A stretch of 64,000 nucleotides of DNA from Candidatus Aenigmatarchaeota archaeon. Lineage in GTDB: Archaea > Aenigmatarchaeota > Aenigmatarchaeia > GW2011-AR5. The notes beneath the pieces are model-generated. The model ran no database searches and was not told where the DNA came from. It was given only the letters and a program-made list of their open reading frames with translations. Each line of letters starts with the position of its first letter. Positions within the stretch are counted from its first letter, which is position 1. The stretch lies in the NCBI GenBank assembly GCA_016193585.1, contig JACPRW010000006.1, positions 126,293 through 190,292 of the forward strand, written 5' to 3'. A program made the translations under genes and the position numbers. Shown in pieces: positions 2,808 through 62,332 of the stretch.

Positions 2808-2851
2808 GAGACTAAGACGCCGGGAAACTTCTTAATGGTTATAGGTGAAAT

Positions 2852-2946
2852 ATAGTGAACCAAGTAAATAATCAGGTATTATATCTTGGTTCACTTATAG
2901 CGGACAACAAAAGTAATATGTCGGTATTCTTTTGTTGTTCCACTAT
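2852..2946. repeat. Tandem kissing-hairpin element, copy 1
   Basis: Ends are ATAG and CTAT. The left stem GTGAACCAAG pairs with 2885-2894 around a 20-nt loop. The right stem GGACAACAAAAG (2902-2913) pairs with its complement ending near 2941 around the loop TAATATGTCGGTATT. The two loops can pair over about 15 positions (10 Watson-Crick, 2 G-U). It lies between mre11 and the divergent DUF488 gene. Nearly identical copies occur at 51954-52048 and 22105-22251. Confidence 0.85.
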
Positions 2947-3062
2947 AACACGTCCTCGGAGGCGGGCGGCACTGCCGACGGGTTAAAAAGCACTTTTCAC
3001 TTTTCGATGCCCGGCTAACCCTTATATGTCCACCACGGACTATTATACAAACTAGTGATAGC

Positions 3063-19269: not shown

Positions 19270-19319
19270 TTCTTCTGTTTTGTTTTTTATTTTTCTCTCT
19301 GTTTATTGCGTCATGCACT

Positions 19320-19464
19320 ATAGTAGATGACATTAATTTTCATACAAGATAATGTCATCTGCATATCCCTAGAAAGCATAGCTTTCTGGGATGCCAGAAA
19401 ACTCTTGTTTTCTGTGCATAGCAGTGACATCCTAATATGTCTGAATACTTATGTCACATGCTAT
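19320..19464. repeat. Tandem kissing-hairpin element with two short hairpins inserted between its arms
   Basis: The left hairpin 19320-19365 has stem GATGACATTA and its complement. The right hairpin 19418-19464 has stem GCAGTGACAT/ATGTCACATGC, with ends ATAG and CTAT. Between the arms lie two short-loop hairpins: AGAAAGC-ATA-GCTTTCT (about 19371-19387) and CAGAAAAC-TCTT-GTTTTCTG (about 19395-19414). Loop-loop pairing is weaker here than in other copies. The 326 bases 19270-19595 hold this and the next element and no gene I can support. Confidence 0.7.
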
Positions 19465-19558
19465 ATACTAAACTGCGAAACTTATATGACGCAGATTCGC
19501 AGTTTGTATACAGATAACTGCTCATAATATGTCATGCAAATTATGCAGTTATCTATAC
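19465..19558. repeat. Tandem kissing-hairpin element directly abutting the previous one
   Basis: The left stem AAACTGCGAA pairs with TTCGCAGTTT, and the right stem AGATAACTGC pairs with GCAGTTATCT. The loops contain ATGAC and GTCAT, which can pair with G-U extension on both sides. The ends are ATAC/GTAT-like rather than strict ATAG/CTAT. It follows the preceding element with no spacer. Confidence 0.65.
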
Positions 19559-19595: not shown

Positions 19596-19862
19596 ATGAA
19601 TTACCAGAAGAGAATACTGGACAAAGTAGATAGCCTGACAGCCGGGCGACCGGAATTAAGTCCTGTAGGGGATGCATTCCGGGACTATTTTGCATCCAAT
19701 GCGAGCGGCTTTGTATTTGGTGCCACACTTTCTGCAGTCATGAGAACTGGTGGGATTGGGGTGGAAGACCCCCTCTACAGAGAGCTTTTTGCTGCAGCTG
19801 AAGAAGCGGACGTGTATTCTGGAGAAAATCTCAGGACACCGCAGGAATTTGCATTGATATAG
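19596..19862 (+). CDS. Small hypothetical protein (88 aa)
   Basis: Begins MNYQKRILDKVDSL and includes a Gly/Ala-rich middle (FVFGATLSAVMRTGGIGVEDPLYREL) that could be one amphipathic or weakly hydrophobic helix. No Cys, no signal peptide and no recognised motif. It lies between hairpin elements at 19465-19558 and 19888-19981. Coding composition looks ordinary for this genome. No function assigned. Confidence 0.5.
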   Translation: MNYQKRILDKVDSLTAGRPELSPVGDAFRDYFASNASGFVFGATLSAVMRTGGIGVEDPLYRELFAAAEEADVYSGENLRTPQEFALI

Positions 19863-19887
19863 ATAATTGCGCAGCTTATGTCGTATT

Positions 19888-19981
19888 ATAGCAATACAAG
19901 GAAATAAACACGATATGACTTCCTTGTTTGCTATATGTGAAGCAAATGTATAATATCGGTATTATTTATTTGCTTCACTAT
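19888..19981. repeat. Tandem kissing-hairpin element
   Basis: Ends ATAG/CTAT. The left stem AGCAAtACAAGGAA pairs with TTCCTTGTtTGCT, and the right stem GTGAAGCAAAT pairs with ATTTGCTTCAC. The left loop contains CGATAT and the right loop ATATCG, a perfect 6-bp loop-loop match in a sequence context different from other copies. It starts 26 bp after the preceding stop codon. Confidence 0.85.
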
Positions 19982-19995
19982 AACGCGCAATTTTC

Positions 19996-20082
19996 TATTT
20001 TTTGGTGCACCGGAAAACCTTGTTTTCCGCGTGTAGCGGACAACAAAAGTATTATGTCGGTATTCTTTTGTTGGTCCACTAT
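19996..20082. repeat. 5'-truncated kissing-hairpin element with one short hairpin
   Basis: Contains the short hairpin CGGAAAAC-CTT-GTTTTCCG (20011-20029) and the right-arm hairpin GGACAACAAAAG...CTTTTGTTGGTCC ending CTAT at 20082. It is almost identical to the right two-thirds of the element at 22105-22251. The left arm is missing, so this is a partial copy. Confidence 0.75.
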
Positions 20083-20087
20083 AACCA

Positions 20088-20411
20088 GTGCAATTCACCA
20101 TACAAACCGGGAGGCGAGGTGCAGAAGGAATTGGCCCGTCACAGGAACCGCATAGAATCTATGCACTGGTCAAGGGAGCTTCTCTGGAAGACGTGCACGA
20201 GGCAAGAGCAAGAATCAAACTCACTGCTTATGGACATTACTTTGGCTTAGATGGTGGTCTGGTAAGAATTTCCATGGAGCCGCTGGATGCAGCTGGCAGA
20301 ACTGTTCGCGACCCCGTTCCTCTCCACGAAGACGGAACGCCTATGGACCCTTCAGACTATACCTATGCAGGCAACTTTCCTTTCAGAAGAAACCGGCCTG
20401 AAACTCGTTGA
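20088..20411 (+). CDS. Hypothetical protein, possibly partial
   Basis: 107 aa from GTG 20088, six bases after a hairpin element. The middle (RIYALVKGASLEDVHEARARIKLTAYGHYFGLDGGLVRISMEPLDAAG, in part) has a plausible alternating strand and helix pattern. The first 20 residues look less protein-like, so the true beginning may have been displaced by the element. The 3' end overlaps the convergent gene by 29 bp. No domain recognised. Confidence 0.4.
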   Translation: MQFTIQTGRRGAEGIGPSQEPHRIYALVKGASLEDVHEARARIKLTAYGHYFGLDGGLVRISMEPLDAAGRTVRDPVPLHEDGTPMDPSDYTYAGNFPFRRNRPETR

Positions 20412-21953: not shown

Positions 21954-21955
21954 TT

Positions 21956-22050
21956 ATAGTGAACCCAGTAAATAATCAGGATATGTTATGACTGGGTTCA
22001 CCTATAGTTCACAAGGAAATAATATCCAGAATCTTTCCTTGTAGAACTAT
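21956..22050. repeat. Tandem kissing-hairpin element 3' of the eS6 gene
   Basis: Ends ATAG/CTAT. The left stem GTGAACCCAGT pairs perfectly with ACTGGGTTCAC, and the right stem ACAAGGAAA pairs with TTTCCTTGT plus an outer AGTTC/GAACT. The loops carry GGATAT and ATATCC, a perfect 6-bp match. It may end the eS6 transcript. The 316 bases 21954-22269 hold this element and the next and no gene. Confidence 0.85.
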
Positions 22051-22104
22051 AAAATGTAAATAGGAAAACTGGTGTCATTGAGGGGGCACGGAAGCAAAGC
22101 ATAT

Positions 22105-22251
22105 ATAGTGAACCAAGTAAACAATCAGGTATTATATCTTGGTTCACTTACACCCAAAAAGCAAAGCTTTTTGGTGCACCGGAAAACCTTGTTTTCCGCG
22201 TGTAGCGGACAACAAAAGTAATATGTTGGTATTCTTTTGTTGGTCCACTAT
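22105..22251. repeat. Kissing-hairpin element with two short hairpins inserted between arms
   Basis: The left arm GTGAACCAAG...CTTGGTTCAC and right arm GGACAACAAAAG...CTTTTGTTGGTCC match copy 1 (2852-2946). Where copy 1 has TTATAGC between arms, this copy has about 50 extra bases with hairpins CCAAAAAGC-AAA-GCTTTTTGG and CGGAAAAC-CTT-GTTTTCCG. The comparison shows short hairpins inserted into a pre-existing element. Confidence 0.85.
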
Positions 22252-22269
22252 AAAAAGGGGGTTTCACAG

Positions 22270-51952: not shown

Positions 51953-51953
51953 T

Positions 51954-52048
51954 ATAGTGAACCAAGTAAATAATCAGATATTATATCTTGGTTCACTTAT
52001 AGCGGACAACAAAAGTAATATGTCGGTATTCTTTTGTTGGTCCACTAT
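51954..52048. repeat. Tandem kissing-hairpin element directly 3' of merA
   Basis: Ends ATAG/CTAT. Nearly identical to copy 1 (2852-2946): left stem GTGAACCAAG, right stem GGACAACAAAAG, with the same loops apart from AGATATT for AGGTATT in the left loop. It lies between merA and the thioredoxin-like gene, so it could end or attenuate the mer transcript. Confidence 0.85.
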
Positions 52049-52080
52049 AAAAGTGAAATATCATTGAAAGATGATTTCAC

Positions 52081-61757: not shown

Positions 61758-62169
61758 TTAGTAGCCCCTACCTCTGCTGAAGGCTTTTACAACCCAAACA
61801 ATAGAATTTTCTACAAAATATTCAAATCTATAGTCTCCAACGCGAAGTCCGTAAAGCGTATTGAGCCGTCCTTTCAGTTTCTTTACATCTGTTCCTGATC
61901 TCGATTCATATGGATTATCTTTATAGTGAACCCACAAAGGAATCCGGACATGAATTTGTGGGTTCACCTATAGCTCACAAGGAAATAATACAAGGTGGAT
62001 TCCATGAATCCACCTGTACAGGAGAATCTTCGATTCTCCTCGTATCTTGGTTGTTTCCTTGTAGAGCTATAAGTGTATTTAGCGCTGCTCTGCACAGGTC
62101 TCTTTCATGGTCTTGCAAAGAATCAAGAAATTTGAGAATTTTTGGGTGCAATCTAACTTCGTATACCAT
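61758..62169 (-). pseudogene. relE: relE toxin gene interrupted by a kissing-hairpin element
   Basis: Codons 1-33 (62169-62071) read MVYEVRLHPKILKFLDSLQDHERDLCRAALNTL and codons 34-87 (61922-61758) read KDNPYESRSGTDVKKLKGRL...YGLRVGDYRFEYFVENSIVWVVKAFSRGRGY. Both halves together give a normal-length RelE-type toxin. Removing exactly 61923-62070 restores the frame without a stop. With the element present, translation reads into it and stops, so the toxin is probably inactive. Its antitoxin lies just upstream with overlapping ends. Confidence 0.88.
61923..62070. repeat. Kissing-hairpin element inserted in relE, with two nested short hairpins
   Basis: 148 bp with ends ATAG/CTAT. The left stem GTGAACCCACAAA pairs with TTTGTGGGTTCAC over 13 bp. 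The right stem ACAAGGAAA/TTTCCTTGT has outer AGCTC/GAGCT. The right loop holds GGTGGATTC-CAT-GAATCCACC (61994-62014) and AGGAGAATC-TTC-GATTCTCCT (62020-62040). Flanks join as ...ATCTTT|AAGTG..., with no target duplication, so insertion was between TT and AA. Confidence 0.88.
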
Positions 62170-62332
62170 GCTTCCTATTATATTCATCTAAAGAGATAAA
62201 CTTATCTCTATCTCTTTCAAGGATTCCATGCAGGTTTTCAATATAGCTTTCTGCAACCATCTCCAGAACTTCCTTAATTTCTTCTATCTCCTCATGCATT
62301 TTAGTTATTTCCTGCTCCACTTTTGTTGGCAT
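62153..62332 (-). CDS. RelB-like antitoxin
   Basis: 59 aa, ATG 62332 to TAG 62153. MPTKVEQEITKMHEEIEEIKEVLEMVAESY, then RDKFISLDEYNRKHGIRS. Its last codons overlap the relE start (ATGGTATACG read in two frames), the typical coupling in relBE pairs. An acidic N-terminal helix and C-terminal tail would wrap the toxin. The toxin gene is broken, so the antitoxin is an orphan. Confidence 0.75.
   Translation of the reverse strand: MPTKVEQEITKMHEEIEEIKEVLEMVAESYIENLHGILERDRDKFISLDEYNRKHGIRS

What the first reader, a model, noticed from the sequence alone, without database searches (positions are those of the whole stretch)
61758..62332. Precise insertion of one element in relE gives its exact ends and shows mobility
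The relE gene is split. Removing 61923-62070, from ATAG to CTAT inclusive, joins codon 33 to codon 34 in frame and gives a normal 87-residue RelE (ALNTL|KDNPYES). The join creates TT|AA with no target duplication. The ends agree with those of the other copies. Insertion without duplication and hairpins at both ends resembles single-strand transposition of IS200/IS605-type elements or passive PATE-type derivatives, but no TnpA gene is in this window.
Basis: seen in the sequence. Interest (0 to 1): 0.9.

Follow-up and report, generated by a model that had tools for sequence, protein, structure and literature searches.

The report
IS630-type mini-transposon inside relE
A short DNA element with no genes of its own has jumped into a toxin-antitoxin gene of a tiny archaeon; it belongs to a swarm of about 200 similar, often nested, hairpin-shaped mini-transposons that most likely borrow the cutting enzyme of IS630-type jumping genes.

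Summary
The insertion is real. A 146-bp core (61924-62069), flanked by TA on both sides, splits a RelE-family gene. Intact RelE homologues in relatives run straight through the break with no residue gained or lost. About ten distinct element-in-element insertions follow the same length rule, always at TA. That fits IS630/Tc1-mariner transposition, not IS200/IS605: no Y1 transposase is found in this genome, and the hairpin loops are inverted between the ends.

The element is a ~96-bp double-hairpin MITE carrying a 52-bp two-hairpin module nested at a TA. It belongs to a swarm filling about 2.4% of the genome (207 loci, ten families used as probes). An order-level relative (Ca. Aenigmatarchaeota) carries an IS630 whose two ends match both ends of one MITE family closely. 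A class-level relative carries an IS630 whose ends resemble this element's own family, with moderate support. No IS630 transposase was found in this genome.

So: a new, modular, fold-back variant of IS630-type MITEs, mobilised in trans. The mechanism is inferred from established IS630 biochemistry; activity is not shown here.

The parts
61758..61922 (-). 3' part of relE-like gene (C-terminal 54 codons KDNPYES...RGRGY and stop)
   Evidence: aligns to RelE-type homologues in 14 relatives
62072..62170 (-). 5' part of relE-like gene (first 33 codons MVYEV...ALNTL)
   Evidence: 73% identical to the G004 homologue; abuts the C-terminal part with no gap in seven homologues
62153..62332 (-). antitoxin-like ORF upstream of relE (59 aa)
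   Evidence: the region is 81% identical in relative G004; no Pfam family at E<0.05
61922..61923 (.). left copy of the duplicated TA target
   Evidence: net-length rule and protein register
61924..62069 (.). inserted element core, TAG...CTA, 146 bp (96-bp double-hairpin MITE plus nested module)
62070..62071 (.). right copy of the duplicated TA target
   Evidence: as for the left copy
61926..61967 (.). left-end hairpin H1 (GTGAACCCACAAA / TTTGTGGGTTCAC)
   Evidence: about 90 H1-type matches in the genome
61969..62071 (.). right-end hairpin H3 (CTATAGCTCACAAGGAAA ... TTTCCTTGTAGAGCTATA), carrying the nested module in its loop
61991..62042 (.). nested 52-bp two-hairpin module (CAAGG...CTGTACAGG...CTCG)
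   Evidence: absent from compact copies; its insertion leaves TA on both sides
61989..61990 (.). left TA beside the nested module
62043..62044 (.). right TA beside the nested module
21955..22252 (.). another H1+H3 element of the same family (compact), followed by an E3-type element
19858..20102 (.). E2-type element with an H1+H3 element nested at a TA in its loop, plus a further element
2851..2947 (.). E3-type double-hairpin element of the swarm
51953..52049 (.). E3-type double-hairpin element of the swarm

Best explanation
The insert is a non-autonomous IS630/Tc1-mariner-type miniature transposon (MITE). Each end is a terminal repeat beginning TA|TAG, followed by an inverted copy of its own outer ~10-14 bases, so both ends fold back into hairpins. 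An IS630-family DDE transposase supplied in trans would excise the element and insert it at a TA, and repair would double the TA. SHOWN here: the TA rule, the multicopy nested insertions, the uninterrupted homologous gene register, and the match of one MITE family's two ends to an IS630 in a relative. INFERRED: that the window's own family uses an IS630 like the one in G115, that the transposase was lost from or is missing in this assembly, and the cut-and-paste chemistry (established for ISY100, PMC2170065). The 52-bp module most likely entered an ancestral copy at a TA and then travelled with it.
For:: insertions of one element into another give internal empty sites. Ten distinct outer/inner pairs, each counted once with intact single inserts, all have net length = inner element (with TATA at both ends) minus 2 bp, at a TA; zero-residue register in seven RelE homologues, which requires a net 148 bp. 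G020 (JACRMW01, Ca. Aenigmatarchaeota) has an IS630 (DDE_3 7.8e-34, IS630-type HTH) with ends TATAGATAACTGCGAAACTTGGATGACGCC and TATAGATAACTGCATAAGTTACATGACATAAG (read on separate contigs that break inside this repeat). They match the left and right ends of MITE family E6 (0 of 1000 shuffles reach either score). Related IS630s in a Nanoarchaeota and a Pacearchaeota record begin TATAGATAACTGCG. G115 has a 992-bp IS630 with ends TATAGNNNTCCAAATAAATAAYCCG, against the H1 class TATAGTGAACCAAGTAAATAATCCGG (shuffle p 0.069 and 0.026 for the two ends). TATAG-N36..42-CTATA occurs 161 times against 14 for the control pattern; 207 loci, 27.8 kb, 24 midpoints in ORFs although ORFs cover 81%.
Against: No DDE_3 protein and no match to the G020 transposase in this genome, although the assembly is 90.75% complete and 8 contig ends lie within 250 bp of an element. 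No IS630 with ends fully matching the window family was found; the G115 match is moderate. IS630 biochemistry does not need hairpins, so the fold-back ends are unexplained. At least one nested case (C1:5134) is 2 bp shorter than the rule predicts.
Confidence: 0.83

Rival explanations
1. IS200/IS605-type single-strand transposition, with the element as a PATE-like derivative that inserts without duplication.
For: Strong hairpins at both ends; the sequence alone allows a parse without duplication; Y1 transposases occur in 15 of 59 relatives.
Against: No Y1 transposase in this genome, nor in element-bearing G009, G014 and G003. Loop motifs are inverted between the two ends. No constant tetranucleotide flanks the copies, only TA. 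Ends match IS630 ends instead.
Confidence: 0.03
2. A TA-targeting enzyme other than IS630, unknown today, recognises the folded hairpin ends; the stems vary freely because structure, not sequence, is read.
For: Twenty unit families have stems that differ from each other but are self-complementary (mean 9.85 of 12 within a unit, 5.36 between units). No IS630 transposase in the genome.
Against: Family E6 matches both ends of a real IS630. The autonomous IS630 ends read show no fold-back, so hairpins are not required for that enzyme. TA duplication is the IS630/Tc1 hallmark.
Confidence: 0.1
3. A structured RNA or regulatory element kept by selection, not mobile DNA.
For: Very stable folds and compensatory stem differences between families; elements sit between genes.
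Against: It interrupts relE, and elements are nested in each other at TA with identical junctions. No Rfam family in the window. Copies are near-identical at unrelated places.
Confidence: 0.03

Closest known systems
RUP of Streptococcus pneumoniae (107-bp MITE linked to IS630-Spn1; PMC2229807, PMC3049150)
   Same: About 100 bp, about 100 or more copies, ends like an IS630, TA target, enzyme in trans
   Different: Here the transposase is absent from the host assembly, several end families coexist, each end folds back on itself, and elements are nested in one another
Correia/NEMIS elements of Neisseria (107 and 155 bp; PMC2229807)
   Same: TA at the ends, a short form and a long form with about 50 bp of extra internal sequence
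   Different: Different sequence and host; here the extra block is a two-hairpin module bordered by TA on both sides, and each end is its own hairpin
BOX elements of S. pneumoniae (PMC3049150)
   Same: Composite repeats with optional internal modules
   Different: BOX modules are tandem boxB units; here modules are TA-bordered hairpin pairs of unrelated sequence at two fixed places
IS630 elements of DPANN archaea seen here (G020, G115, L132, L135)
   Same: TATAG-starting ends, TA flanks, end sequences shared with MITE families
   Different: They carry a DDE_3 transposase, and their ends show no fold-back arm in the stretches read
IS200/IS605 and PATE elements
   Same: Hairpins near the ends
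   Different: Enzyme absent, loops inverted, TA target

Membership tests
IS630/Tc1-mariner MITE | Insertion at TA with TA on both sides | tested here: met
   the sequence cannot separate a TA duplication from insertion between T and A, but the TA rule holds
IS630/Tc1-mariner MITE | Ends shared with an autonomous IS630 | tested here: inconclusive
   clear for family E6 (G020 IS630, both ends); for the window's own H1 class only moderate (G115, p 0.069 and 0.026); no IS630 was found for the H3 end
IS630/Tc1-mariner MITE | Autonomous partner in the same genome | tested here: not met
   no PF13358 and no tblastn match; assembly incomplete. Not a strict requirement for a MITE
IS630/Tc1-mariner MITE | Short, no transposase gene of its own, multicopy | tested here: met
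IS630/Tc1-mariner MITE | Mobilised in trans by the transposase | not testable with these tools
   needs a transposition assay
IS200/IS605 or PATE | Y1 (HUH) transposase available | tested here: not met
   none in this genome
IS200/IS605 or PATE | Fixed target tetranucleotide at the left end | tested here: not met
   flanks vary apart from TA
IS200/IS605 or PATE | Hairpins in the same orientation on one strand | tested here: not met
   sequence: the loop TTGGAAC..TTTTA of F2 and TAAAA.GTTCCA of F1 are inverted; H1 and H3 likewise
Known RNA family | Match to an Rfam model | tested here: not met
   none in the window at gathering thresholds

The most novel reading that the evidence does not exclude
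The fold-back ends are functional: a group of IS630-related elements in DPANN archaea moves as double hairpins recognised by shape, with stem sequence free to drift as long as it stays paired, and the TA-bordered ~50-bp hairpin pairs are themselves among the smallest mobile DNAs known.
Probability: 0.15. Interest if true: 0.7.

Novelty: new variant of a known kind. Interest (0 to 1): 0.45.

Why it matters
It shows an archaeal genome of about 1.2 Mb with at least 2.4% of its sequence in IS630-type mini-elements, although no IS630 transposase was found in it. The nested copies give ready-made empty sites and a relative order of arrival. The architecture (each end a hairpin, optional TA-bordered hairpin modules) is a testable puzzle about why non-autonomous elements gain fold-back ends that the autonomous ones lack. 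No paper in the held library combines DPANN with IS630, or Aenigmarchaeota with miniature inverted repeats.

Tried and rejected
IS200/IS605 (no Y1 enzyme, inverted loops). Pairs of solo H1 hairpins as ends of a 2-3 kb autonomous element: the intervals C1:111689-114089 and C3:129988-133089 hold ordinary genes. Rfam: nothing at gathering threshold. 48-bp single hairpins as independent elements: 48 of 257 units looked solitary, but on inspection most have a partner displaced by a nested module, so this was dropped. The second IS630-like gene of G020 (C7, C72, C104) gave no usable ends. The G011 DDE_3 hit lies on a contig with a dnaE-like reading frame and may be contamination. Orthologous empty site at DNA level: the closest relative, G004, has its own deletion starting at the same point, so only the protein register could be used. 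The phylum-wide search repeated the class-wide one.

Full report
1. What is there. The window is part of a 1.17-Mb, 10-contig genome. A genome of the same order, G020, is Ca. Aenigmatarchaeota: its transposase matches record JACRMW01 at 100% (phylum). At 61758-62170 a RelE-like reading frame on the minus strand is split. In seven homologues the last residue of the N-terminal piece and the first residue of the C-terminal piece fall on neighbouring residues. So the insertion added 148 bp net. Pfam support for the C-terminal piece as RelE/ParE/HigB-like is weak on its own; the antitoxin-like ORF upstream and the homologues carry the assignment.

2. Ends. Both flanks read TA, so three placements of the 148 bp are equivalent. 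"No duplication" is therefore not an observation.

3. Anatomy. The element has a left hairpin H1 and a right hairpin H3. A 52-bp two-hairpin module sits in the H3 loop at 61991-62042. Compact copies, for example C1:137758-137853, are otherwise identical to the window element and lack the module.

4. The swarm. The genome pieces were put together in the Python box (about 3.6 kb of contig tails were not fetched and 1,971 bases of C8 read N). They hold at least ten related double-hairpin families of 94-99 bp: 136 full-length copies, 207 loci, 27.8 kb, mostly between genes. The pattern TATAG-N36..42-CTATA occurs 161 times here against 14 for its reversed control. Eight contig ends lie within 250 bp of an element, so copy number is underestimated.

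5. Empty sites from nesting. Elements inserted in other elements give built-in empty sites. For intact single inserts, ten distinct outer/inner combinations all obey one rule: the net gain equals the inner element (counted with TATA at both ends) minus 2 bp, at a TA. Examples are E3 in E2, E4b in E2, E2 in E5, E1 in E5, E4 in E3 and E3 in E6. One case is 2 bp short (C1:5134). Many repeated nestings may be copies of one composite rather than separate events.

6. The enzyme. IS630 transposases (PF13358) are found in 14 of 156 genomes of the class and not in this one; tblastn with the G020 enzyme also found none here. In G020 the ends of the IS630 match both ends of family E6; left and right ends were read on separate contigs that break inside the repeated gene. 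Related elements in a Nanoarchaeota and a Pacearchaeota record share the TATAGATAACTGCG start. In G115 a 992-bp IS630 has ends TATAGNNNTCCAAATAAATAAYCCG, close to the H1 class; this link is moderate. Its reading frame is in two overlapping parts, either a frameshift or a broken copy. Y1 transposase is absent here. ISY100, an IS630-family element, cuts exactly at its 3' ends and inserts at TA with TA duplication; Tc1/mariner cleavage has no hairpin intermediate (PMC2170065).

7. Fold-back ends. In 20 unit types the two arms match at a mean of 9.85 of 12 positions within a unit and 5.36 between units, with 1 of 380 cross-comparisons at 10 or more. Stems therefore change while pairing is kept. 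Some unit types are related to each other, so the 20 are not fully independent. Templated correction of palindromes, a known mutational process (own knowledge), could produce this without selection. The autonomous IS630 ends that I read have no fold-back arm.

8. Verdict. The insertion and its mobility are sound. The mechanism is best read as IS630-type transposition in trans, not IS200/IS605. It is a new variant of a known kind: comparable to RUP and Correia elements, with an unusual modular double-hairpin build and heavy nesting.

Noticed in passing
G000 C8:95767-95818, C7:55435-55486, C5:124351-124401, C8:73536-73584: Two-hairpin modules of about 50 bp, like those nested in the MITEs, also stand alone between genes with other flanks; they may be a separate small repeat class.
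   Followed up: partly
L104 1547-1828 (G004:C33): The closest relE homologue lacks about 23 residues, starting at the same LNTL where the element sits in the window; the lost stretch is bordered by an LNTL repeat, so a repeat-mediated deletion is likely.
   Followed up: partly
L120 and L121 (G020:C72 and C7): A second IS630-like transposase gene in G020 is itself interrupted by TATAG-ended elements carrying long strings of hairpins joined by GTAC.
   Followed up: partly
L123 (G011:C8:22500-26500): The DDE_3 fragment lies beside a dnaE-like reading frame; the contig may be bacterial contamination.
   Followed up: no
L115 (G002:C12): An IS630 with other ends (TACTATGACAATTTAATTA...), in a genome that also has an excess of TATAG...CTATA units (62 against 16 for the control).
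   Followed up: no
window 19858-20102 and 19318-19557: Composite stacks of several element families nested in one another; useful for ordering bursts of activity.
   Followed up: partly
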